Shown here: one piece after another, positions 23,198-58,839 of the stretch
How the letters are laid out: the number at the start of each line of letters is the position of its first letter
How positions within the stretch are numbered: the first letter of the stretch is position 1
Source of the DNA: Agromyces laixinhei
GTDB taxonomy: Bacteria; Actinomycetota; Actinomycetes; Actinomycetales; Microbacteriaceae
Length of the DNA stretch: 64,000 nt
Reading direction: 5' to 3'
NCBI RefSeq assembly: GCF_006337065.1
Contig: NZ_CP040872.1
Span: 1,736,001 to 1,800,000 of the forward strand
Translations under genes and position numbers: made by a program
Notes under the pieces: generated by a model
Seen by the model: only the letters and a program-made list of their open reading frames with translations
Told to the model about the DNA's origin: nothing
Databases searched by the model: none

Positions 23198-26160
23198 CGA
23201 TCACCGCCGACGGCGGCCTGATCCGGCAGGTGGGGGCGCTCGGCATCGAACTCGACACGGCACCGCGCCGCGTGGCCGAGTACGCCTACGACGCCTCGAA
23301 CTACCGCATCGAGCCACTCGGAGTCGCCTTCCCGCGCACCGCGTCCGAAGTCGCCGAGCTGCTGGCACTCTGTCACCGGCTTCGGGTGCCGGTCGTGAGC
23401 AGAGGCGGCGGCACGTCGATGGCCGGAGGCGCGATCGGCGCCGGCATCGTGCTCGACTTCTCGCGCCACATGAACGCCGTGCTGCGGGTCGATGCGGCAG
23501 CCGAAGAGGCCACCGCACAGCCGGGCATCGTGCTGACGACCCTGCAGCGGGAGGTGGCGCAGGCGACCGGCGACGCCATGACCTTCGCGCCTGACCCGTC
23601 CAGCAGATCCAGGGCCACCCTCGGCGGCGCCATCGCGAACGACGCGTGCGGCAACCACTCGGTGCGATACGGTCGCACCTCCGATCACGTCATTGCGCTC
23701 GACATCGTCACGGCAGACGGACTCATGCTCACCGCCACTCGCTCCGGTCTCGAGCCGACCATCGCCGGAGACCAACTCGCCGAACAGCGCGCCGCCGACC
23801 TGAACGACGAGCTGCGAGGCCTCGCCGCCGCCAACCTCAGTGCGTTCCGTCTCGAACTCGGGCGCATCCCGCGTCAGGTTTCGGGGTTCCACCTCGCTCA
23901 CCTGCTGCCTGAGCACGACTTCGATGTGGTGCGAGCGCTGGTCGGCAGCGAGGGCACCTGTGCGGTCATCGTTGCGGCGACGGTGCGCCTCGTGCCGACG
24001 CCGGCCGCCGCGCTGCTGCTGACCCTCGGGTACGACGATGTCGTCGAAGCGGCCCGCGACGTCATGACCATCCTCGAGTTCTCTCCTGCAGCCGTCGAAG
24101 GCATCGACGAGGCCATCGTCGACACCATGCGGCACCTGCGCGGCGATGACTCCGTGCTGGGTCTGCCTGACGGCCGCGCCTGGCTGTATGTGGATCTCGA
24201 CGGCGACGATCCCGCCGATGTCGCGGCCGAGGCCGGTGAACTGCTCGCGCGGCTCCGTGAGAACGGCAGGATGCGCGCCGGCCGGGTGGTCGAGGACCTC
24301 GTCGAGCGGGCATCGCTCTGGCGGGTGCGTGAAGACGGCGCCGGGCTCTCCGCGCGGCTGCACACCGGCGGCGAGTCGTGGCCAGGCTGGGAGGACTCCG
24401 CCGTGGCGCCCGAGCACCTGGCCGCATATCTGTCCGAATTCCGCGAGCTGCTCGAGCGATTCGAGCTGCACGGCGTGATGTACGGCCACTTCGGCGCGGG
24501 CTGCATGCACGTGCGCATCACCTTCGACCTACGCACCGACGCAGGGCGTGCGGTGATGGAGGCGTTCTGCTTGGCTGCCGCCGAACTCGTGGTCGAGCAC
24601 GGCGGGTCGCTCTCGGGCGAGCACGGCGACGGCAGATCACGGAGTGAACTGCTGTCGGTCATGTACTCGCCGGCGATGCTCGAGGCCTTCGCCGCCTTCA
24701 AGTCCGCCTGGGATCCGGCCGGCATTCTGAATCCCGGCATTCTGGTCGATGCCGACGCACTCGCCGACAATCTCGCGCTCGACGGCGTTCCCGAGCGCGA
24801 ATGGCGAACGAGCTTCGACCTGACCCCGCACACCGCGTCGCCGCATCAACGGGCGGTGGACCCGTTCGTGCATGCCGTGCAGGGCTGCGTCGGCATCGGT
24901 CGCTGCCGGTCGGAGGTCGGCGGCGTCATGTGCCCGAGTTACCGGGCGACCGGCGACGAGAAGGACTCGACCAGGGGCAGGTCGCGAGTCCTGCAGGAGA
25001 TGGTACGTGGCGCGCGCAGCGTCGAGATGGGATGGCGGTCGGAAGATGTGCGCGAGGCCCTCGATCTCTGCCTGTCGTGCAAGGCGTGCTCGACCGATTG
25101 CCCGGTCGGCGTCGACATGGCCAGCTACAAGTCGGAGTTCTTCGATCATTACTACGAGCGGCGATTGCGCCCCCGCTCTCACTACTCGCTCGGGTGGTTG
25201 CCGGTCTGGTTGCGGTTCACGCCGCACGTGGCGCCGCTCTTGAACGTCATTCTCGCCTCGCCGCTCGGCAAGGTGGTCGCTGCGCTGGGCGGGCTGACCA
25301 CCAAGCGCAGCCTGCCCCGCTTCGCCGGCGCGCGGCAGCTCCGGCGCGCGCTCGACCGCACGCAACACGTGGCCGACCCCGAGATCGTGCTCGTCATCGA
25401 CAGCTTCACGAAGGGGTTCCGGCCAGAGGTGGCCGGAGCCGCCCGACGGGTGCTGAACAGCAGCGGCAACACGGTCGAGTGCAACGCCGAGGTGTGCTGC
25501 GGCCTCACGATGATCTCCACCGGCCAACTCGACGCAGCCAAGCAGCGATTGGCGAAGGCAGCGCAGGCCCTCGACGACGACACCGACCGACCCATCGTGG
25601 TGATCGAGCCGAGCTGCGCCGCGGCCTTCCGCAAAGACCTTCCCGAGCTGGTGCACACCGACGCCGCCCGTCGCGTCGCTCGTCGCATCCGCAGCTTCGC
25701 CGGCATGATGGCCGAGCTCGTCGAAGCGGGATGGCAGCCCGACTGGCGTGACGGCCGGGCCCCGAAGGAGGTGACAGTGCAGACCCACTGCCACGAGTAC
25801 GCGGTGTTCGGGGCGAAGAGTCAGGTCACGGCGCTGCACGCGATCGGTGTGGAGAGCGTTCGAGAAGCGACCGGATGCTGCGGGGTTGCCGGCAACTTCG
25901 GATTCGAGCCGGAGCACTTCGACATCAGCATGCAGATCGCCGAACAGGCGCTCATCCCCGCACTGCGCCGAACCGCCGCCGAGACGCCGGTGCTCGCCGA
26001 CGGATTCAGCTGCCAGATGCAGCTCATGCAGGTTGCGAAAGAGCAAACCGGCATGCACCTCGCGGAACTCGTCGATGCCGGCACGATGCCCACCACGGCG
26101 GCGCCTTCGGCACCGTCGACCCCACCATCACGACCCCCCTTCGACAAAGGACGATCATGA
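23194..26160 (+). CDS. FAD-linked oxidase fused to [4Fe-4S] and CCG domains
   Basis: 988 residues from ATG 23194 (ATGA overlap). The N-terminal 530 residues are a GlcD/D-lactate dehydrogenase-type FAD module, with the nucleotide-binding stretch SRGGGTSMAGGAIG. A ferredoxin-like segment follows: CVGIGRCR, MCPS and CLSCKACSTDCPVG (from about residue 626). The last 300 residues form a cysteine-rich CCG region with EVCCGLTM (about 768) and TGCCGVAGNFG (about 895). Such fusions (Dld- and YdiJ-like) oxidise D-2-hydroxyacids and pass electrons to the respiratory chain. Here it lies between an aminotransferase and an aldehyde dehydrogenase; the substrate is probably a D-2-hydroxyacid intermediate or by-product. 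Confidence 0.88.
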   Translation: MTITADGGLIRQVGALGIELDTAPRRVAEYAYDASNYRIEPLGVAFPRTASEVAELLALCHRLRVPVVSRGGGTSMAGGAIGAGIVLDFSRHMNAVLRVDAAAEEATAQPGIVLTTLQREVAQATGDAMTFAPDPSSRSRATLGGAIANDACGNHSVRYGRTSDHVIALDIVTADGLMLTATRSGLEPTIAGDQLAEQRAADLNDELRGLAAANLSAFRLELGRIPRQVSGFHLAHLLPEHDFDVVRALVGSEGTCAVIVAATVRLVPTPAAALLLTLGYDDVVEAARDVMTILEFSPAAVEGIDEAIVDTMRHLRGDDSVLGLPDGRAWLYVDLDGDDPADVAAEAGELLARLRENGRMRAGRVVEDLVERASLWRVREDGAGLSARLHTGGESWPGWEDSAVAPEHLAAYLSEFRELLERFELHGVMYGHFGAGCMHVRITFDLRTDAGRAVMEAFCLAAAELVVEHGGSLSGEHGDGRSRSELLSVMYSPAMLEAFAAFKSAWDPAGILNPGILVDADALADNLALDGVPEREWRTSFDLTPHTASPHQRAVDPFVHAVQGCVGIGRCRSEVGGVMCPSYRATGDEKDSTRGRSRVLQEMVRGARSVEMGWRSEDVREALDLCLSCKACSTDCPVGVDMASYKSEFFDHYYERRLRPRSHYSLGWLPVWLRFTPHVAPLLNVILASPLGKVVAALGGLTTKRSLPRFAGARQLRRALDRTQHVADPEIVLVIDSFTKGFRPEVAGAARRVLNSSGNTVECNAEVCCGLTMISTGQLDAAKQRLAKAAQALDDDTDRPIVVIEPSCAAAFRKDLPELVHTDAARRVARRIRSFAGMMAELVEAGWQPDWRDGRAPKEVTVQTHCHEYAVFGAKSQVTALHAIGVESVREATGCCGVAGNFGFEPEHFDISMQIAEQALIPALRRTAAETPVLADGFSCQMQLMQVAKEQTGMHLAELVDAGTMPTTAAPSAPSTPPSRPPFDKGRS

Positions 26161-27641
26161 CCCTGTTGACAGCTCCGACCGACGCCCGCTCGGTCATCGA
26201 TGCCCTGCACACCGGCCTCTTCCTGAACGGTGAGTGGGTCGACGCCGAGCACGGCAAGACCTTCTCCGTCGAGAATCCGGCGACGGGAGAAGTGCTCACC
26301 CGGGTCGCCGACGGTTCGGTTGCCGATGCCGGTCGGGCGATTCAGGCGGCCGGCGATGCCCAAGCCGATTGGGCGAGGACGGCGCCACGCGCCCGGAGTG
26401 AGATCCTGCGGCGGGCATACGAACTCATCATCGAACGCAGCGAGGAGCTCGCGGCCATCATGACCGCCGAAATGGGTAAGCCTCTCGCGGAGGCCCGCGG
26501 CGAGGTGGCGTACGGCGCCGAGTTCTTCCGCTGGTTCTCAGAAGAGGCGGTGCGGATCAACGGCGACTACACGACCACCGGCGACGGCAGGAATCGCATC
26601 CTGGTCTCACGCGTTCCCGTCGGACCCTGCGTGCTCGTCACGCCGTGGAACTTCCCGTTGGCCATGGGTACTCGCAAGATCGGGCCGGCCGTCGCCGCGG
26701 GATGCACGATGGTGTTCAAGCCCGCGGCGCAGACGCCGCTGACCTCGCTCGCACTCGTGCAGATCCTGCTGGAGGCCGGCCTGCCGGCGGGGGTGCTGAA
26801 CGTGGTGACGACGTCGAACTCATCCTCCGTGGTCAGCACCTGGATGAGCAGCGGCATCGCTCGCAAGGTGAGCTTCACCGGATCGACCGAGGTGGGGAAG
26901 ATCCTGCTCAGGCAGGCGGCCGAGAATGTGATGCGGTCGTCGATGGAGCTCGGCGGCAACGCCCCGTTCATCGTCTGCGCGGATGCGGACGTCGATCGCG
27001 CTGTGGACGGGGCGATGACGGCCAAGCTGCGCAACATGGGGGAGGCGTGCACGGCGGCGAACCGCTTTCTGGTGCATCGATCGGTCGCCGCAGAGTTCAC
27101 CGAGAAGCTTGCGAAGCGGATGGCGGTGCTCCGTGTAGGTGATGGCAGCGAACCCGGCACGGACATCGGTCCGCTCGTCGACCAGGCCGGGCTCGACAAG
27201 GTGCAGTCGTTCGTCGACGACGCGGTCGAACGTGGCGCGTCGGTCGCCATCGGCGGCAGTCGCCCCGACAGGCCCGGCTACTTCTACCCGCCGACCGTGC
27301 TTGCCGACGTCAGCGCCGACGCTGCGCTGATGACGGCGGAGATCTTCGGCCCGGTTGCTCCGGTCATCCCGTTCGATGACGAGGCCGATGCCGTTCGCAT
27401 CGCCAACGACACCGAGTGGGGGCTTGTCGGTTACCTCTTCACCCAGGACATCGACCGCGCCCTTCGCCTCAGCGACGAACTCGAGGTGGGCATGGTCGGC
27501 TTGAATTCCGGCCTTGTCTCGAACCCGGCGGCGCCGTTCGGCGGCATCAAGCAGTCCGGGCTCGGTCGGGAGGGCGGTAGGTCCGGCATCGACGAGTTCC
27601 TCGAACAGAAGTACGTGGCGATTCCGCGCTCGCGAACCTGA
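26157..27641 (+). CDS. Succinate-semialdehyde dehydrogenase-like aldehyde dehydrogenase
   Basis: 494 residues from ATG 26157, overlapping the previous stop (ATGA). NAD(P)-dependent ALDH: TPWNFPLAMGTRKIGPA, SFTGSTEVGK, general base Glu264 in MELGGNAP and nucleophile Cys298 in GEACTAANR. It is closest in style to GabD-type enzymes. Next to a class III aminotransferase it should oxidise the semialdehyde made by transamination: aspartate semialdehyde (DoeC role) or succinate semialdehyde. It is the last gene of the first operon; 45 bases separate it from the GntR gene. Confidence 0.9.
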   Translation: MTLLTAPTDARSVIDALHTGLFLNGEWVDAEHGKTFSVENPATGEVLTRVADGSVADAGRAIQAAGDAQADWARTAPRARSEILRRAYELIIERSEELAAIMTAEMGKPLAEARGEVAYGAEFFRWFSEEAVRINGDYTTTGDGRNRILVSRVPVGPCVLVTPWNFPLAMGTRKIGPAVAAGCTMVFKPAAQTPLTSLALVQILLEAGLPAGVLNVVTTSNSSSVVSTWMSSGIARKVSFTGSTEVGKILLRQAAENVMRSSMELGGNAPFIVCADADVDRAVDGAMTAKLRNMGEACTAANRFLVHRSVAAEFTEKLAKRMAVLRVGDGSEPGTDIGPLVDQAGLDKVQSFVDDAVERGASVAIGGSRPDRPGYFYPPTVLADVSADAALMTAEIFGPVAPVIPFDDEADAVRIANDTEWGLVGYLFTQDIDRALRLSDELEVGMVGLNSGLVSNPAAPFGGIKQSGLGREGGRSGIDEFLEQKYVAIPRSRT

Positions 27642-27689
27642 ACCACGCTCAGGAATCTGAAACACTGATGTCGATCCAAGGAGGACATG

Positions 27690-51892: not shown

Positions 51893-52816
51893 GTGCCCGA
51901 ACTGCCCGAAGTCGAGGTGGTGCGGGCCGGACTCGCTCCGGCCGTCACCGGCGCCGTCGTGTCGGCGGTCGAGGTGCTCGAACCTCGTTCGCTGAAGCGG
52001 CACGACGCGGCATCCGGCGATTTCGAAGCGCTGCTGACGGGTGCGCGCATCGAGGCGGCCGTGCGCCGCGGCAAGTTCCTCTGGCTGCCGCTGTCGGGCG
52101 ATGAGCGACGTTCGGGCCGTGCGGTCGTCGGACACCTCGGCATGAGCGGTCAGATGCTGCTGCGAACGCCCGACCACCCCAGCACCGATGCCCACGCCCG
52201 AGTGCGACTGCACCTCGAGCATGCCGAGCACGGCGAACTGCGCGTCGATTTCGTCGACCAGCGCATCTTCGGTTCGCTCGCGATCGACCGCCTCGTTCCC
52301 ACGGCCGATGGCGAGGTCGGCGGCTTCTCCGACGGCGTTTCGGGGGAGTGGGCGCGGCAGGTTCCGGCACAGGTCGCTCACATCGCGCGCGACCCGCTCG
52401 ATCCGGCGTTCTCCGACCGCGCCTTCTTCGCGGCCCTCGCCAAGCGGGGCACGGCGATCAAGCGCGTGCTGCTCGATCAGGGGGTCGTCAGCGGCATCGG
52501 CAACATCTACGCCGACGAGTCGCTCTGGGCGGTGCGGCTGCACGGCGGGCAGCCTGCGCGCTCGCTCTCCCGGCGGCGCGCCCGCGACCTGCTCGGTGCG
52601 GTGCGCGAGGTGCTCGGCAAGGCGCTCGCCGAGGGCGGCACGAGTTTCGACGCCCAGTACGTGAACGTCAACGGGGCATCCGGTACTTCACAAGCAAACC
52701 TCAATGTCTATGGGCGTCAGGGACTGCCATGCAAGCGCTGCGGAGCCCAGATCGTGCGTGAGCGTTTCATGAACCGCTCGAGCCATTTTTGCCGCTCCTG
52801 CCAGCGAAAGCGGTAG
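51893..52816 (+). CDS. mutM: Formamidopyrimidine-DNA glycosylase with a replaced 3' end
   Basis: 307 residues from GTG 51893. MutM/Fpg excises 8-oxoguanine: PELPEVEVVR N-terminus (catalytic Pro/Glu), RRGKFLWLP (Lys of the active site), HLGMSGQMLL, H2TH region VSGIGNIYADESLW and a C-terminal zinc finger CKRC...CRSC. Up to GGAS-G (52684) codon use is local; from 52685 the sequence is less GC-rich and of different style, ending in QRKR. The native tail lies 5.9 kb away at 58562-58717. The hybrid still encodes a full zinc finger, so it is probably active. Confidence 0.93.
   Translation: MPELPEVEVVRAGLAPAVTGAVVSAVEVLEPRSLKRHDAASGDFEALLTGARIEAAVRRGKFLWLPLSGDERRSGRAVVGHLGMSGQMLLRTPDHPSTDAHARVRLHLEHAEHGELRVDFVDQRIFGSLAIDRLVPTADGEVGGFSDGVSGEWARQVPAQVAHIARDPLDPAFSDRAFFAALAKRGTAIKRVLLDQGVVSGIGNIYADESLWAVRLHGGQPARSLSRRRARDLLGAVREVLGKALAEGGTSFDAQYVNVNGASGTSQANLNVYGRQGLPCKRCGAQIVRERFMNRSSHFCRSCQRKR
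52676..52692 (+). other. Left junction of the mutM insertion (candidate attL)
   Basis: Reads GCATCCGGTACTTCACA. Native mutM coding ends at GT 52683-52684; sequence to the right belongs to the insert. The GT dinucleotide is the only base pair shared in frame with the right junction, compatible with a serine-recombinase core. Confidence 0.5.
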
Positions 52817-53003
52817 CGGATACCTGGTACTTGCAACTCCGATCTTCGGTCGGACGGCTCGCCTCGACTCACTGCACGTCAATGCGCAGAGCTTCGAAAC
52901 GCTGCACGTGACTTCGAGGTGTGTGGGCACGATCGTAGCCCGGCGCTCAGCGAAGGGAACCGGCCCGACGTAGCTGTCGGCCGGAGACTGGAAACTACGG
53001 ACG

Positions 53004-53458
53004 ATGCCTGAGCTCCCTGAAGTCGAGGTCGTGCGCCGAGGACTCGACGATCATGTCCGTGGCCGGACGATCGCGGCGGCCGTCATTCGACACACGCGGG
53101 CCGCGCGTCGGCACGTGGCGGGTCCTGAGGATCTGGCGGCACGGATAGTTGGTGCGACGGTCACGGGGACTGCGCGTCGCGGCAAGTACCTCTGGCTAAT
53201 GCTGGATGATCGGGACGCGCTGCTTATGCATCTGGGGATGAGCGGGCAGATGCTGATCACGTCGTCTGATACGGCGATCGCTCCGCACGAGCGGGCGCGG
53301 TTCACCTTCGAGGATGGTGGCAGCGATCTGCGCTTCGACGATCAACGCACGTTCGGTCACCTGATGTACGACGAGGGCGGTGCGAAGTTGCCGTCGCCGA
53401 TCGCCCATATCGCGCGGGATCCGTTCGACCCGGAGTTTGATCAAGCGGCGACGGTCGC
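53004..53458 (+). pseudogene. Second mutM, truncated after the N-terminal domain
   Basis: ATG 53004 starts a second MutM: PELPEVEVVRRGLDDHVRG, RRGKYLWLMLDD, LHLGMSGQMLITS analogues and IAHIARDPFDPEFDQAATVAR. Homology stops near 53458; the H2TH motif and zinc finger are absent and the frame then reads unrelated basic residues. It is not a recent copy of the neighbouring mutM, because the proteins differ at many positions. It marks either an older occupant of this site or material brought by the insertion. The 187 bases before it (52817-53003) hold no gene that I can see. Confidence 0.8.
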
Positions 53459-53459
53459 G

Positions 53460-53649
53460 CGGCGAAGGGGTCGACCTTGTCCCAGGCGATGATCGACATC
53501 GAGATCAGGGGCACCAGGGCGATGCCTCCGAGCAGCCCGGCCGCGCCGACGACCTTCTGCGCAACGCGCCGGGGCCCGGCGGGCACACATCCGCGCGCAA
53601 GCCGTCGAACATCGGTCGCCAGCAGCAGGCAGCGTGAGCCCAATGGCAA
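53460..53649 (-). pseudogene. Fragment with a membrane-like segment
   Basis: On the minus strand this stretch reads ARRVAQKVVGAAGLLGG followed by a hydrophobic run ending in SMSIIAWDKVDPFAAR, which looks like one membrane helix of a larger protein. Neither end is a proper gene end: one abuts the broken mutM copy and the other an unrelated fragment. I do not recognise the family. Confidence 0.35.
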
Positions 53650-53700
53650 GCAGCTCGTGCTCGCGCCCTATGCACGGAAGCCCTTTCCTGCCGCCCTCAA

Positions 53701-53880
53701 CCGGCGCCCGGGCGCTTCTTTGCGGACGAGCCCGATGCGTTGGTGGAGGAGCTACGCCGTGACGAAGCGATCCAGACGGCCGATACGCTGCTGTTGACAG
53801 TGCTGACACAGCTTGGGGTGAGCTATAACGCTCATCTGTTGGAGGCGCTAGTGACGCATGTAGCGCCTGCCCTCGGCGTG
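53701..53880 (+). pseudogene. C-terminal fragment of an LLM-class flavin oxidoreductase
   Basis: The frame FFADEPDALVEELRRDEA...ADTLLLTVLTQLGVSYNAH...LTHVAPALG resembles the conserved end of bacterial luciferase-like monooxygenases. The first 300 or so residues are missing and no start is present. The end runs into the convergent AraC gene. It is one of several broken genes packed into 53.0-53.9 kb. Confidence 0.5.
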
Positions 53881-54726
53881 GGGCTGTCGCAGGTCAGTCG
53901 GCCATGCCGTGGCATCGACTGCCAAGAACGGTTCGTTGGGAACGGTGCCGGGGGTGACCCCGGCGAAGGCCACGACCTCTCGATGCAGATGCGCCTGGTC
54001 GGTGTAGCCACAGTCCGCAGCAACCAGAGCCGGCCGATGCCCGGCTACCAGCCGATGGGCGGCGATATCGAATCGAACCAACCTCGCGGCCTGTTTCGGC
54101 GGCAGTCCGATCTGTGACTGGAACCGAGACCAGAGCCGCTTTCGACTCCATCCCAGCTCGGCTGCCAGCCGGTCGACTCGGATATCCCCGCCGCCGAGGC
54201 GCATCTGCTCCCAGGCCCATTGCACCTGCGGATCGACCAGCCTCTGCTCGGCCCAGCGATCGGCGAGCGCGGTGTCGGCGATCGCGAACCGCTCTGGCCA
54301 GGAGCGGGCATCGGTCAGTCGTTCACCGATCCGGACCGCCTCCGCTCCCCAAAGGTCGTCCAAGGACACCAGGCCACCGGCGATGTCGGCCAGCCTGACG
54401 CCCAGCAGAGATTCGGCGACGAGAGGCGAGAGGCGTACCTGTATAGCGTCGATGTTCTCCCCGCGCACTCTCACCGCGCCGCCGAGACCGAGGCCGGCTA
54501 CCAGACTTCCCCGGTGCCGTCGCCCGGAGGCGTCATCCACGAGCGGCGGTTCCGCACCGAAATCCAACACCAGCGTCACGGTCGGATGCGCGACCAGGCG
54601 ATGGCCCGTAGGTGGCATGTCTCGATCGGAGAAACCCGCCATCCAGACACCGCGAATCCGACTCGGCTGCTCAGGCCGGGCGACATCCCAAACCATTGTC
54701 GGGGTTCCGGAAGCGGTGAACCGCAT
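53848..54726 (-). CDS. AraC-family transcriptional regulator
   Basis: 292 residues from the ATG at 54726 (a GTG three bases upstream is also possible). The C-terminal third is an AraC HTH pair: IRVDRLAAELGWSRKRLWSRF, then ADCGYTDQAHLHREVVAFAGVTP. The N-terminal part is a ligand-binding region without a motif I recognise. It is divergent from the hydrolase at 54792 with 65 bases between, so it probably regulates that gene. It is part of the cargo within the mutM insertion. Confidence 0.85.
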   Translation of the reverse strand: MRFTASGTPTMVWDVARPEQPSRIRGVWMAGFSDRDMPPTGHRLVAHPTVTLVLDFGAEPPLVDDASGRRHRGSLVAGLGLGGAVRVRGENIDAIQVRLSPLVAESLLGVRLADIAGGLVSLDDLWGAEAVRIGERLTDARSWPERFAIADTALADRWAEQRLVDPQVQWAWEQMRLGGGDIRVDRLAAELGWSRKRLWSRFQSQIGLPPKQAARLVRFDIAAHRLVAGHRPALVAADCGYTDQAHLHREVVAFAGVTPGTVPNEPFLAVDATAWPTDLRQPHAEGRRYMRH

Positions 54727-54791
54727 CACCTGAGTCTACCGAAGGAACATTCGTACAAGCCTGGGTACGCGGGAGTCGCGAGAGTGGTCCC

Positions 54792-55607
54792 ATGACGACT
54801 CAGAGAGAAACCTCCGACATCCTTCACGTGATCCAAGACGGATCACCAGACGCCCCCGCGCTCGTGCTGGTCCATGGCACCGGTGCTTCGGGCCGCTCAT
54901 GGGACGCGCTCGTCCCGAGGCTGGCCGGCGTTCACCGGGTGATCCGGCCGGACCTGCTCGGTCATGGCTGCTCACCGGTCCCCGCCAGCGGTGATTACGG
55001 GATCACCGACCAGGCGTGGTGGCTGGCACGGACCCTGGACCACATCGGCATCGAACAGGCGGTCCTGATCGGGCACTCCACCGGAGGGGCCGTGGCCACC
55101 GCGCTGGCGGAGTTGCGCCCCGAGATCATCTCCGCGCTGACGCTGATCAACACCGGACCTCATGTGAATGCCTATATCGCTCCTGATCTGGCCATCGACC
55201 GGGCGCAGTGGCCGGAGTTGAGCGACGCGCAGATCCGCCAGGCCATGACCTCCGCGTTCAGCCGCCCCGACTTCGAGGTTCCCCAGCAGATGGTGGACGA
55301 TGTGCGTGCGGTGAGCTTCGACGCCTTCGTCGGGACGACCCGCGCCTCGTTGGCCTATCTCGCCGAACGGCCCCTGCCGGAGCGATTGACCAGGCTCGGC
55401 ATGTCGCTCATGGTGGTCTTCGGGGCGGAAGACCGACGATGGCGATCCTCCTCGGCTGCCGATTATCGTGCCGTGCCGGGTGCCGAGGTCCGGTTGCTGC
55501 CCGGCATCGGGCATACGCCGATTGTTGAGGAACCGGCGGCGATCGAATCGCTCATCCTGCCTTTCGTCGCTGCCCACGCGATGCCGACTGTCAGCGCCGG
55601 AGACTGA
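54792..55607 (+). CDS. Alpha/beta hydrolase
   Basis: 271 residues from ATG 54792. Alpha/beta-hydrolase fold: LVHGTGASGRSW (oxyanion hole), nucleophile Ser in GHSTGG, Asp in VFGAEDRRW and His in PGIGHTPIVEEP. Substrate unknown. The divergent AraC regulator suggests induction by a small molecule. A catalytic role in breaking down or activating an ester or lactone would fit, but nothing in the sequence is more specific. Confidence 0.85.
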   Translation: MTTQRETSDILHVIQDGSPDAPALVLVHGTGASGRSWDALVPRLAGVHRVIRPDLLGHGCSPVPASGDYGITDQAWWLARTLDHIGIEQAVLIGHSTGGAVATALAELRPEIISALTLINTGPHVNAYIAPDLAIDRAQWPELSDAQIRQAMTSAFSRPDFEVPQQMVDDVRAVSFDAFVGTTRASLAYLAERPLPERLTRLGMSLMVVFGAEDRRWRSSSAADYRAVPGAEVRLLPGIGHTPIVEEPAAIESLILPFVAAHAMPTVSAGD

Positions 55608-55758
55608 CCTGCCATTTACCAGCTCCGGCGTTTGCGGCTGCAGCGTTCGCCCACCATCATGGCGAGGTCAGGAAGGACTCGTCGGCACCGTGCAACTCCT
55701 GCACGTCGCAATAGTCGGTGCTGACCTCGAAGGCCGCCCGCGTGAGCCGACGGAGCGT

Positions 55759-56238
55759 TCACGCCGGCTCGGACACAATCGTCAACGGACCCTCGTCCGG
55801 GGAGGGCGGCTCGAAGTGGTCGATCTACCGCCGGGCCACGTCGGCCGGGAGCGGGAACCCGTCGGGCTGCGCGGCGGATCGCCTCTCGACCCGGGCCAGC
55901 GCAGTGCCTGGGTCGGTCGCGACCAGCACGGTCTCGGGCACCACGCGGGTCGGCGCGAGGACCGACCTCCACTCCTCACGCATCCGCCGCGACCAGAACG
56001 ATAGGTCCAGCACCACGTCGTGGCCGCGGCGCACCAGGTCGAGCAGGCGATCTCGCAGGTCCTCCACGATCGCGGACTCCGCGTCCGGCGGGAGCGGCAT
56101 CGCTCGGTGCCCACGCTCCCACGCCTCGCGGTCGATCGAGAGCAGCTGGAAGCCCTCTGCCTCGAGCCGGCGAGCGTAAGTCGACTTCCCCGAGCCCGCC
56201 GGACCGCACATGAACACCGCTCTGGCCATCCCAGTCAT
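55759..56238 (-). pseudogene. P-loop small-molecule kinase-like gene with an in-frame TAG near the end
   Basis: From ATG 56238 (ATGA overlap with the membrane gene upstream) the product is a P-loop kinase of the chloramphenicol/gluconate-kinase style: FMCGPAGSGKSTYARRL at the N-terminus, LLSIDREAWERG and VVLDLSFWSRRMREEW. TAG at 55827-55825 ends the frame after PADVARR. The same frame then continues IDHFEPPSPDEGPLTIVSEPA to a TGA at 55761-55759. Relatives, as I recall, read RRYIDHFEPP, so TAC or TAT has probably become TAG. The product loses its last 22 residues and may or may not still work. Confidence 0.7.
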
Positions 56239-56732
56239 CCCCTCGGGCGAGGGATCGACAGGCTGGCCGGGATCAGCGCGCACACCAGCGCGGTCCAGAC
56301 GATCATGTAGAGGGTGAACGGGAGCCCGCCGTCTCCGGCGATCACACGCATCCCGAAGAGCAGCGACATGCCGGCCAGGAAGGCCGCCGCCACGATGACC
56401 GGCAGCGTACGGAGCCATCGGTTCCAGCGGTGCGTGACGGGCCCCAGCGGCAGCAAGACGAGCACGGCGATCAGGACCGCGACCGCGGCATTGCCCCACT
56501 GCGCGGCCGAGATCTCCGCCGCACCGCCGTACTCGGCGGCGTCCTCGGGGGTGACCGCCGGGCCGCCGTGGACGCCGAGCCGGCCCTGCATGGCGTGATG
56601 AGCCTTGGAGACGATGTAGGGGAGCGCCCAGCACGCCGCTGCGACCGCGACGACTCTGCCGGGCGTCCGGCTCGTGACGCGTCGCTTGTCGTCGAGGGCG
56701 GACATCGGCCGCGCGGTTCGTTCGGGACGCAT
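56235..56732 (-). CDS. Small membrane protein of unknown family
   Basis: 165 residues from the ATG at 56732; an internal ATG (MSALDDKRR) is an alternative start. Four hydrophobic segments (about 27-43, 80-100, 112-132, 138-158) separated by short loops, one with a HAMQGRLGVHGG stretch. I do not recognise the family; DUF3995-like proteins look similar. Its stop overlaps the start of the broken kinase gene, so they form a two-gene unit. Confidence 0.65.
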   Translation of the reverse strand: MRPERTARPMSALDDKRRVTSRTPGRVVAVAAACWALPYIVSKAHHAMQGRLGVHGGPAVTPEDAAEYGGAAEISAAQWGNAAVAVLIAVLVLLPLGPVTHRWNRWLRTLPVIVAAAFLAGMSLLFGMRVIAGDGGLPFTLYMIVWTALVCALIPASLSIPRPRG

Positions 56733-56775
56733 GAGGTGCCTGCCTTCCTGATTGTCGGAGCATCGAGTCGGGTGA

Positions 56776-57267
56776 TCACCGGGAGCTGCAGGGTGCCGCG
56801 AGCGGCACGTACTTCCGGTCTCCGGTGCGGGCCACGGCGTCGAGGAGCGCCCCGGCGCGGGCGAGCCTTCGAGCGCGTGCGGGATGGCCCTGCCTGCGGG
56901 CGAGTGCGCGCCCGAGGTCGCGATTAAGGGCCGTGAGGGCTGGAAGCGGCCGAACGGCCAGGGTGATCCTGGCGCTCGCGCCGTCCCCGTCGAGCTCGAG
57001 GTGCTGGAACTCGTGGATCTCGACGCCGCCGACCCATGCCCTCGAAGTCAGGAAGGCTTCCCCGTCCCCGCGCAGGTCGCGCTCGTACAGGTAGTCCGAC
57101 ACGACCTCGAACACTGCCTCCAGGAGCTGCCCGATCTCGCCCGGGCCGCGGAACCGGAGCTGGTCGGTCAGCGGCGAGACGAGCTCGCCATGAGGTGCGA
57201 CAACGGCCACCGCTGCGTCGAAATCACGCGCTGCGCCGGCCTGCTTCCATGCGTCGATCGAGTCCAC
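56776..57267 (-). CDS. NTF2-like (SnoaL-type) protein
   Basis: 163 residues from the GTG at 57267 (GAAGG eight bases upstream); longer starts exist. Pattern of an NTF2-like fold: WKQAGAARDFDAAVAVVAPHGELVSPLTDQLRFRGPGEIGQLLEAVFEVV, then antiparallel strands. No catalytic residue is assigned. The Arg/Ala-rich last 40 residues may be an unstructured tail. Start and tail are uncertain. Confidence 0.6.
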   Translation of the reverse strand: MDSIDAWKQAGAARDFDAAVAVVAPHGELVSPLTDQLRFRGPGEIGQLLEAVFEVVSDYLYERDLRGDGEAFLTSRAWVGGVEIHEFQHLELDGDGASARITLAVRPLPALTALNRDLGRALARRQGHPARARRLARAGALLDAVARTGDRKYVPLAAPCSSR

Positions 57268-57405
57268 CGATACTGCCTTCGTGACCGCTGAGCAGAGTTC
57301 CAGCAACGCCGCCTCGTCGTCCGGGCCACATCGGCAACCCTTCGCTCGTGAGTGTCACCGAGCCTTGTCTTGCCTCCCGGAACCCGACTTGAAGAAGAAA
57401 ATACC

Positions 57406-57419
57406 ATACTGTTTCGTAT
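57406..57419. promoter_or_regulatory. Palindromic operator-like site ATACTGTTTCGTAT
   Basis: ATAC-N6-GTAT in an AT-rich island of about 35 bases between the divergent NTF2-like gene and the membrane gene. The form resembles TetR-family operators. No TetR gene is in the window, so the regulator would have been left behind or lie elsewhere. Confidence 0.4.
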
Positions 57420-57460
57420 AGAAGCACCGACGGACCATCGCATCCCGAGGGGGATCCCGC

Positions 57461-57928
57461 GTGATCGAAGGCCCGAGCACACGAATCGACCTGCCGAATG
57501 TGGCCGGCCTGCGCAGGCAGGCGGGCACCGTGGGGGCCGTCGCGCTGTTCGGCGTCGGCGTCGTCCACACGGTCACCAACACGGTCGCGTTCGCCCTCGC
57601 CGGCTGGGATGGGTCGTGGCCGCTGTTCCTGCTGTTCAATCCCGGCCTGAGCGCCGTGCTCATCGCGATCGCCGTCGTCGTCTGGCGGGATGTCCGTCAG
57701 TGCCGCCCGCGCTGGCCGGCACGCGTCGTCATGGGTCCCGGGGCGCTGTTCTGCACCGTCAAGCTCATCAACGTGCTGCGCGTCGACCCAGCGGCGATCT
57801 GGATCCCGATCGGGCCCGGCCCCTGGGTGCTGGTCGGCGCACCCGCCCTGCTCGCAGCCGCCCTCCCCGCCGGCGGGAGCCGAACCCACCGCGAGCCGGA
57901 TCCCGCGACCGCTGACGTCTCCGGCTGA
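57461..57928 (+). CDS. Small membrane protein, DUF4383/DoxX-like in shape
   Basis: 155 residues from GTG 57461. Four hydrophobic segments (about 24-44, 53-75, 88-104, 112-132) with a conserved-looking GVVHTVTNTVAF in the first. Family not recognised with confidence. The upstream palindrome at 57406 may control it. It precedes an acetyltransferase gene by 44 bases. Confidence 0.6.
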   Translation: MIEGPSTRIDLPNVAGLRRQAGTVGAVALFGVGVVHTVTNTVAFALAGWDGSWPLFLLFNPGLSAVLIAIAVVVWRDVRQCRPRWPARVVMGPGALFCTVKLINVLRVDPAAIWIPIGPGPWVLVGAPALLAAALPAGGSRTHREPDPATADVSG

Positions 57929-57972
57929 TCGCCGATCACGCAGTCCTCGACGACGACACGAAGGAGCACCGA

Positions 57973-58839
57973 ATGCCCACGATCTTCAGCCACAAGCCGA
58001 CGCTTCGCGGCGACCGCGTCACCCTGCGCCCGATCCGGGCCAGCGACGCCGACCCGCTCGACGCGATCATGCGCCACGACCCCGAGATCGCGATCCTGAC
58101 CGGATCGGTGCACTCCCTCGACGAACCGGTCACCAATCCGCCGATCGATCGGATGCGCGAGACCTACGGCCAGTGGAGCACAGCGGACGACCGGCTCGTC
58201 CTCGCCGTGATCGACAACGACGACGGCGACTGCCGAGTGCTCGGCGAGGTCGTGCTCAACGAATGGGACGAGGAGAACCTGTCCTGCGGCTTCCGCACTC
58301 TCATCGGCGCGGCCGGATGCGGGCGCGGACTCGGTACCGAGGCGACCCGGCTGATCGTCGCGTACGGCCTGCAGGAACTCGGTCTGCACCGCATCGCGCT
58401 GCAAGTCTACGCCTTCAACCCTCGCGCACGGCACGTGTACGAGAAGGTCGGCTTCCGGCACGAGGGCACCGGCCGCGACGCGCTCCGGTTCGACGGCGGA
58501 TGGGTCGACGTCGACTACATGGCCGCCCTTTCCACCGACCCTGAGCCCGGACTTGGGATGTGTCTTCGAGCACTCACTGAACGCGTACGGAGGCGCCGGC
58601 CGACCCTGCCCGCGATGCGGCACGCCGATGGTGCGCGAGCAGTTCATGAACCGCGGTTCGCATTTCTGCCCCAACTGCCAGCGGGTCAGGACGGCGCGTC
58701 AGCGGACTCCGGGCTGATCGTCGACGCGCTGCCAGGTGGCTTCGAGGCCGCATCGGATGAAGCCGAGGGCGATGTTGATCGCGAGCATGTGCTCGTTCTC
58801 GTCGGCGTTCCACGTGTAGACGACGGTGCGCTCGGGTGA
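57973..58839 (+). CDS. GNAT acetyltransferase whose frame runs past the insertion end
   Basis: 288 residues as read, with ATG 57973. Residues 1-190 form a RimJ-type GNAT domain: [19 protein letters not shown], the acetyl-CoA loop [15 protein letters not shown] and [23 protein letters not shown]. At 58561 the frame crosses the end of the insertion and enters the displaced mutM tail out of frame, then the antisense of the next gene, adding about 90 basic and random residues. The original stop must have been lost at the junction. The GNAT core is complete, so activity is possible. Confidence 0.75.
58552..58569 (+). other. Right junction of the mutM insertion (candidate attR)
   Basis: Reads CTTGGGATGTGTCTTCGA. 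GT 58560-58561 is the last base pair of the insert side; the native mutM codons GTC TTC GAG resume at 58562. Confidence 0.5.
58562..58717 (+). pseudogene. Displaced native 3' end of mutM
   Basis: Without a start, the frame reads [20 protein letters not shown] and then a zinc-finger end with HFCPNCQRV and a TGA at 58715-58717: the normal C-terminus of a microbacterial MutM. Placed after 52684 it restores a 315-residue protein in frame. It now lies 5.9 kb from the gene body and is cut off from any promoter or start. Its end overlaps that of the convergent acetyltransferase gene by 19 bases, which must be the ancestral arrangement. Confidence 0.85.

What the first reader, a model, noticed from the sequence alone, without database searches (positions are those of the whole stretch)
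52685..58561. mutM-targeted insertion that swaps the gene's 3' end for a new one
Direct reading shows mutM up to GGT at 52684 followed by a foreign tail with a full zinc finger, while the native tail (52 codons including stop) sits at 58562-58717. Joining 52684 to 58562 gives one continuous 315-residue frame. Both ends share GT. Elements that enter protein genes and supply a replacement end are known for other genes; a mutM-targeting one with a GT core and this cargo is not something I can name. No recombinase is left in the insert.
Basis: partly seen in the sequence, partly recalled or inferred. Interest (0 to 1): 0.82.

Follow-up and report, generated by a model that had tools for sequence, protein, structure and literature searches.

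The report
Mobile element replaces mutM gene's end
A decayed mobile DNA element sits inside the DNA-repair gene mutM, has given that gene a foreign ending that keeps it full length, and left behind part of a spare mutM; related elements, several of them carrying anti-phage genes, sit at the same spot in other actinobacteria, so the end of mutM appears to be an unreported landing site.

Summary
The insertion is real. The host mutM head (51893-52683) is fused in frame to a foreign zinc-finger tail (52684-52816); the native tail lies about 5.7 kb downstream (58564-58717) and matches uninterrupted relatives at 87.6-88.4%. It recurs: 15 of 398 sampled family genomes, this one included, have an extra mutM tail downstream on the same strand, and 9 more of 297 order genomes do (three over contig ends). 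One insert (G140) carries a large serine recombinase about 40 bp from its right end. Many, not all, element ends show the 5-bp attP/attB offset known for serine integrases (9 of 17). Tail, spacer and mutM2 match an element in another family at 81% over 831 gapless bp, where mutM2 is complete; mutM2 is one clade across three families and under purifying selection. The window copy is a remnant: no recombinase found, mutM2 truncated, right attachment half gone. The "GT core" is not supported. Kind: elements that reconstitute their target gene. New: the mutM site, the spare mutM, an associated HTH protein.

The parts
51893..52683 (+). Host mutM 5' part (catalytic N-terminal domain and H2TH domain)
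   Evidence: Pfam PF01149 and PF06831; 93% aa identity to the same stretch of L002 over 264 codons
52661..52683 (+). Left attachment half: GTGAACGTCA followed 23 bp on by the end of GG, the spacing of uninterrupted mutM genes; GG 52682-52683 is the proposed exchange point
   Evidence: Sequence; attB spacing over 34 mutM genes. Exchange dinucleotide is inferred
52684..52816 (+). Element-supplied mutM 3' end with zinc finger and stop
   Evidence: zf-FPG_IleRS; homologous tails in G612 and G826; dN 0.139, dS 1.41 against G826 tail 1, 40 codons
52817..53003 (.). Element spacer between tail and second mutM
   Evidence: Inside the 831-bp gapless 81% match to G612; 52685-53003 is 60.5% G+C against 71.5% for the mutM head
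53004..53466 (+). Truncated head of the element's own second mutM (mutM2)
   Evidence: PF01149 only; 84% aa to mutM2 of G612 and G826 over 153 codons; one clade with mutM2 of G612, G826, G703. End of homology at about 53462-53466
53467..53847 (.). Fragmentary sequence after the mutM2 break
   Evidence: No sizeable gene recognised by eye; not searched further
53848..54729 (-). AraC-type regulator; origin uncertain
   Evidence: PF12833; next to the hydrolase also on Streptomyces plasmids at 64-67% nt
54792..55607 (+). Alpha/beta hydrolase; origin uncertain
   Evidence: PF00561
55825..56292 (-). Frame with an AAA_33 kinase-like domain; origin uncertain
   Evidence: PF13671
57973..58545 (+). GNAT acetyltransferase whose frame runs through the right junction without a stop; origin uncertain
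   Evidence: PF13302; frame 57973-58839
58562..58563 (.). Right junction, eroded: neither the attP motif nor the native GGGTA is left
   Evidence: Motif scan of the junction, best 5 of 10 letters
58564..58717 (+). Displaced native mutM 3' end
   Evidence: blastn 87.6-88.4% to L002, L003, L004 over 121 bp; translation

Best explanation
The window holds the left part of a decayed integrative element of a family that enters mutM at one point, the GG of the glycine codon before Tyr-Phe, between the H2TH domain and the zinc finger. Integration was most likely catalysed by a large serine recombinase acting on an attP that carries a mutM-like 3' end. The chromosomal head is joined to the element's tail, so the host keeps a full-length chimeric MutM, and the native tail is pushed to the far end. 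Elements of this sub-family also carry a complete second mutM (mutM2), probably as a spare. Here the element later lost its right end, any recombinase and most of mutM2, leaving the chimera as the only full-length mutM at the locus. Shown: displaced tail, recurring insertion point, chimeric frame, the homologous tail-spacer-mutM2 block in another family, the mutM2 clade, purifying selection on mutM2, a serine recombinase in one insert, and a 5-bp attP/attB offset in many ends. Inferred: that such a recombinase made this particular insertion, GG as the exchanged dinucleotide, activity of the chimera, and the rescue role of mutM2.
For: Displaced tail and empty-site relatives. 15 of 398 family genomes and 9 further of 297 order genomes with an extra tail; in 20 of 20 same-contig cases besides the window it is downstream on the same strand. 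Serine recombinase about 40 bp from the orphan tail of G140. Element ends: motif at 28 bp from the end of GG as unique best in 9 of 17 arms, tied in 2, against 23 bp in mutM genes; none of the 17 has it at 23; the 5-bp shift is described for serine integrases (PMC3783163, passage). Window block 81% identical over 831 bp to G612 of another family; mutM2 clade 100/87; mutM2 dN 0.097, dS 0.696 between G612 and G826. The chimera aligns over residues 1-305 to solved MutM 1l1t.
Against: The window itself has no recombinase and no right attachment half. A recombinase was found in only one insert; PF07508 gave 16 matches in 16 genomes asked, one of them inside an insert. In 6 of 17 element ends the motif is best elsewhere, and the motif was chosen by eye before it was counted. 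Half of the family cases (7 of 14 besides the window) have tblastn matches that start before or after residues 263-266. Movement has not been observed.
Confidence: 0.8

Rival explanations
1. The inserts without a recombinase are not decayed but built as dependents: they keep an attP, a small HTH (excisionase-like) protein near the right end and cargo, and are moved by a recombinase encoded elsewhere. The window element would be a broken member of that class.
For: The HTH protein is near the right end in G221, G515, G608, G500 and G612, and in 297 order genomes it was found only in these five (four of which supplied the profile) and in G703, 950 bp from a mutM2 piece; G826 has it inside its array. 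None of these inserts showed a recombinase in the searches made. In G518 a weak HTH match lies about 1.1 kb from a serine recombinase at another locus. Weak excisionase match in PHROGs for two of four.
Against: Loss of the recombinase with retained ends (CIME-like decay) would look the same (PMC5704250, passages). G140 has a recombinase and no HTH match. No helper was identified.
Confidence: 0.35
2. No site-specific element: a foreign mutM segment (tail, spacer, second mutM) came in by homologous or illegitimate recombination and displaced the native end.
For: The window's right end has no attachment half; first and orphan tails are nearly identical in G318 and G076, which could also be gene conversion or duplication.
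Against: The same seam recurs in different families with unrelated inserts, always with the extra tail downstream (20 of 20); the block matches G612 across families, spacer included; a recombinase stands at the right end in G140.
Confidence: 0.08
3. A tyrosine recombinase with a longer identical overlap made the insertion.
For: Many element tails keep the host GGNTAYTTC stretch, so the identical stretch can be long.
Against: In the window, G612 and G826 nothing after GG is kept. No tyrosine recombinase was noticed by eye in the frames listed for the larger inserts; no profile search for one was made.
Confidence: 0.05

Closest known systems
Genomic islands that enter a protein gene's end and reconstitute it (e.g. 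SGI1 at the 3' end of trmE)
   Same: Fixed site in a conserved protein gene; the host gene regains a full-length frame after integration. PMC12884075 (passage) says islands often reconstitute the genes they enter; PMC8409611 (start of abstract in listing) gives SGI1 at trmE.
   Different: Target is mutM, the exchanged part is a whole zinc-finger domain, and a complete second copy of the target gene is carried by some members. The enzyme type differs from SGI1's (recalled, no call).
Integrative and mobilizable elements with a serine recombinase
   Same: G140's insert has a serine recombinase and a MobA-type relaxase at a specific site.
   Different: PMC5704250 (passages) says integration of the site-specific serine-recombinase IMEs it reviews disrupts dispensable genes; here the gene keeps an open full-length frame. 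Nothing of this kind is left in the window.
CIMEs and accretion at attR
   Same: Elements without integration genes, stacked in tandem at one site (G826, G318), as described in PMC5704250 (passages).
   Different: A shared HTH protein marks several of them; the window copy has also lost its right end, so it does not keep both att sites.
SCC elements at rlmH/orfX (recalled, no call)
   Same: Serine recombinases, arrays at the end of a housekeeping gene; the G140 enzyme has weak matches to CcrA, CcrB and CcrC models.
   Different: Those matches are far below the curated cut-offs (68 of 900 bits at best); different host range and target.

Membership tests
Integrative element that reconstitutes its target gene | Inserted within a gene with native end displaced; relatives show the empty site | tested here: met
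Integrative element that reconstitutes its target gene | Element supplies a replacement end in frame | tested here: met
   One 307-residue frame with all three MutM Pfam domains
Integrative element that reconstitutes its target gene | Same site in independent genomes with different inserts | tested here: met
Large-serine-recombinase element | Encodes a serine recombinase (Resolvase plus Recombinase domains) | tested here: not met
   Window: no match of the G140 enzyme. Met in G140
Large-serine-recombinase element | attP half-site with the recombinase motif 5 bp further out than in attB | tested here: inconclusive
   Family: unique best in 9 of 17 ends, tied in 2. Window's own right end lacks it
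Large-serine-recombinase element | Recombination of attP with attB by its enzyme | not testable with these tools
   Needs a bench assay
CIME (element keeping attL and attR, lacking integration and transfer genes) | Both attL and attR retained | tested here: not met
   Left half present, right half absent in the window
Integrative and mobilizable element | Relaxase or oriT | tested here: inconclusive
   Relaxase in G140; in the window none among the nine frames scanned; oriT not sought
MutM (formamidopyrimidine-DNA glycosylase) | N-terminal Pro-Glu, H2TH domain, four-cysteine zinc finger | tested here: met
   Window chimera. The role of these residues is recalled; activity not tested

The most novel reading that the evidence does not exclude
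A natural 'home and rescue' element family: it lands in the repair gene mutM, restores it with a selected replacement zinc finger and, as insurance, brings a complete second mutM of its own lineage. The mutM site serves as an exchange point for anti-phage cassettes across actinobacterial families, and the recombinase-less cassettes are dependents that carry a dedicated HTH factor to use recombinases encoded elsewhere.
Probability: 0.28. Interest if true: 0.82.

Novelty: new variant of a known kind. Interest (0 to 1): 0.62.

Why it matters
It marks the 3' end of mutM as a recurring integration site in at least six actinobacterial families, with defence genes in at least 11 of the inserts looked at. 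Reading what lies between mutM and its displaced tail is then a direct way to look for new anti-phage genes. It is also a natural case of a mobile element that carries a spare copy of the gene it interrupts, and it offers a serine recombinase with a predicted site in a widely conserved gene.

Tried and rejected
GT as exchange core: rejected; relatives read GGG TAC TTC or the like and the window's right end is eroded. A compensated frameshift in the new tail (my note): dropped once G612 and G826 showed that tails of this sub-family differ in sequence and length just after Ser-Gly. tRNA target: no tRNA in the window. Carriers among phages, plasmids or viral contigs: the tail gave only other glycosylase genes, mostly below 60% or nothing; mutM2 gave 3 plasmid records and 1 phage record at 66-69% nt and 6 viral contigs at 26-33% aa; the HTH protein gave nothing. 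Relatives of the G140 recombinase: 22 other genomes of 398 at E<=1e-40 and 8 viral contigs, none with a convincing mutM piece in the loci fetched, mostly about 1.5 kb either side. One result (window orphan tail against L002) was read in a wrong frame and is not used. In one search most element arms were cut one base shorter than the mutM arms and 7 of 16 arms shown were left out; one search repeats the count with 17 arms cut alike, which lowers the support (9 of 17 instead of 8 or 9 of 10).

Not counted as displaced tails, read off the tables by hand: 13 of 31 with only a distant paralog (G062, G073, G079, G106, G138, G158, G258, G296, G325, G346, G406, G431, G443), 3 unclear (G246, G276, G347), and G651, G653, G681, G691. 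Searches scored only part of the candidates in each genome, so the counts are lower bounds; the two samples share some genomes. Frames in the inserts were judged by eye; only the proteins named were scanned, chosen because they looked like defence or mobility genes.

Papers: full-text searches listed none on mutM as an attachment site. In PMC10083194 and PMC12884075 the words mutM and glycosylase do not occur in the main text (passages seen). PMC3783163 and PMC5704250: passages only. PMC8409611: start of abstract in a listing. Supplementary tables could not be searched, so an unnamed entry in a recombinase table is not excluded.
Full report
OBSERVATION. mutM starts at 51893, after rnc, and ends at 52816. 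Its last part is foreign: same-genus relatives read GCATCCGG-GTACTTCGAGCAC at the seam, the window reads GCATCCGG-TACTTCACAAGC, and about 5.9 kb further on stands GGGATGTGT-CTTCGAGCAC. The stretch from 58564 matches the native tail of L002, L003 and L004 at 87.6-88.4% over 121 bp; in L007 and L008 tail, convergent acetyltransferase and smc start align as one piece. The window is part of one 3.44-Mb contig. Of six matches to MutM in this genome four are listed: the chimera, the second head described next (48%, residues 1-185) and two partial matches at 37% and 32%.

SECOND mutM. 53004-53466 is a MutM N-terminal domain with nothing after it. In G612, a genome of another family, the same block is present: host head, foreign tail, about 190 bp spacer, and then a complete second mutM. 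Window 52632-53462 aligns to it at 81% over 831 bp without a gap; the first 52 of these bases are host head. A complete copy also occurs in G826 (82% aa to that of G612), a truncated one in G703 and a C-terminal piece in G318 (77% nt to that of G826). In a tree of 46 MutM N-termini the copies of window, G612, G826 and G703 form one clade (100/87), away from the hosts' own genes; the bootstrap had not settled. Between G612 and G826 dN is 0.097 and dS 0.696. In G612 the host chimera has lost the fourth zinc cysteine and its stop while mutM2 is complete; in the window the chimera is complete and mutM2 truncated; in G826 both are complete. Each of these three keeps at least one complete copy.

RECURRENCE. 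A profile of nine tails (A1) was run on 398 family genomes: 392 match, 31 of them at least twice. Full listing of those 31 leaves 15, the window included, with an extra tail on the same contig and strand, downstream, 0.6 to 11.4 kb away: G000, G060, G076, G078, G115, G140, G147, G205, G206, G215, G218, G221, G308, G318, G380. Thirteen have only a distant paralog and three are unclear. Of 297 order genomes (detail) six more have head and extra tail on one contig (G493, G515, G518, G539, G544, G608) and three over contig ends (G500, G609, G612). In the genus of G140, 2 of 27 have two matches, G140 and G462. G826 adds an array of about 40 kb. In 20 of 20 same-contig cases besides the window the extra tail is downstream on the same strand. 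The tblastn match of the orphan starts at residue 263 or 264 in 6 of the 14 family cases besides the window, at 266 in G215 as in the window, and at 249-259 or 277 in the other seven.

RECOMBINASE. The 11-kb insert of G140 ends in a 491-residue frame with Resolvase and Recombinase domains whose start is about 40 bp from the orphan tail; it also holds a MobA-type relaxase and a type I restriction system. It is the only serine recombinase seen inside an insert: PF07508 gave 16 matches in 10 of 16 genomes asked, one of them at mutM. For the draft cases over contig ends (G609, G612) linkage cannot be judged. G500's match is some 20 kb beyond its orphan tail, in what looks like a comM gene. The window genome's own match is about 460 kb away.

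ATTACHMENT SITE. In 34 uninterrupted or host mutM genes the motif GTGAACGTCA stands 23 bp from the end of GG. In 17 element right ends cut alike it is best matched at 28 bp in 9, tied there in 2 (G221, G515) and best elsewhere in 6 (G318, G215, G518, G609, G544 and the last end of G826); in none is it at 23. With the ten arms, no shuffle of 2000 reached the observed mean, but the motif was picked by eye and the arms were a selection. A 5-bp shift of the zinc-domain motif between attP and attB is described for serine integrases (PMC3783163, passage). In window, G612 and G826 nothing after GG is shared with the host, which puts the exchange at or before GG. The window's own right end has neither the motif nor the native GGGTA: the right terminus is lost.

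HTH PROTEIN. A small HTH protein lies near the right end of the inserts of G221, G515, G608 (with an internal stop), G500 and G612. A four-row profile (A2) finds it in 6 of 297 order genomes: these five, four of which supplied the profile, and G703, where it lies 950 bp from a mutM2 piece. Of 22 further genomes, nearly all with displaced tails, G826 has it inside its array and G518 has a weak match elsewhere (E 2.4e-4), about 1.1 kb from a serine recombinase; 20 have none. Pfam names HTH_17 for one of three tested, PHROGs gives weak excisionase matches for two of four, NCBIfam none. The 398-genome family sample was not searched with it.

CARGO. Eighteen proteins from other inserts, picked because they looked like defence genes, were run against PADLOC: 14 match, from 11 inserts with AbiH of G318 by Pfam and GmrSD domains in G205 and G518. 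Types include type I restriction-modification, AbiU/AIPR, OLD/Gabija-like ATPase, Stk2-like kinase, SoFic, ApeA-type HEPN and PDC-S06. This is no rate. G826 and G493 instead share metal-resistance-like cargo (judged by eye) at 85-86% nt. The window's cargo differs: an AraC regulator beside an alpha/beta hydrolase, also found side by side on Streptomyces plasmids at 64-67% nt, a kinase-like frame and a GNAT protein. Two window proteins run against PADLOC gave nothing. Whether this cargo came with the element cannot be told.

MECHANISM. The seam lies between the H2TH domain and the zinc finger, so a whole domain is exchanged; the chimera aligns with solved MutM 1l1t over residues 1-305. Element tails look selected for this job: window tail against G826 tail 1 gives dN 0.139 and dS 1.41 (40 codons, dS near saturation). 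The likeliest course is integration by a serine recombinase, use of the chimeric gene, mutM2 as a spare, then decay from the right. Stacked tails in G826 and G318 point to repeated use of the site.

KNOWN AND NEW. Elements that reconstitute the gene they enter are known (PMC12884075, passage), as are decayed elements and their stacking (PMC5704250, passages). None of the papers listed names mutM as such a site. New here are the site, its breadth, the spare mutM and the HTH protein.

Noticed in passing
L192:1214-2090 (G612): The host chimera there has lost the fourth zinc-finger cysteine and its stop codon, while the mutM2 behind it is complete: the reverse of the window.
   Followed up: partly
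L222/L223/L244 (G826:C5:77000-126500) and L181 (G493): Two genomes share metal-resistance-like cargo at 85-86% nt in their mutM inserts; G826 also has a second element tail about 14 kb behind the first.
   Followed up: partly
L135 and L138 (G206, G147): Very small inserts in two genera carry a similar single HNH-nuclease gene (Pfam for L135 only; similarity by eye).
   Followed up: no
L147/L215 (G276:C14:432-1262): A second complete mutM (57% aa to mutM2 of G612) near a contig end, far from that genome's own mutM and outside the mutM2 clade.
   Followed up: partly
G518:C1:861085-861192 and 862296-862541: A weak match to the HTH protein lies about 1.1 kb from a serine recombinase; a possible hint that the HTH protein partners such enzymes.
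   Followed up: no
window 57973-58839: The GNAT frame runs through the right junction into the displaced tail in another frame, as if a deletion had removed its own stop.
   Followed up: no
L002, L003, L006: These relatives have about 1.3 kb between mutM and the convergent acetyltransferase that the window and L007/L008 lack.
   Followed up: no
G500:C51, oriented 24869-27668: A serine recombinase frame overlaps the cut end of a comM-like gene, apparently another protein-gene target.
   Followed up: no
L247 (G000:C1:1326527-1326808): The window genome's only PF07508 match, about 460 kb from mutM.
   Followed up: no
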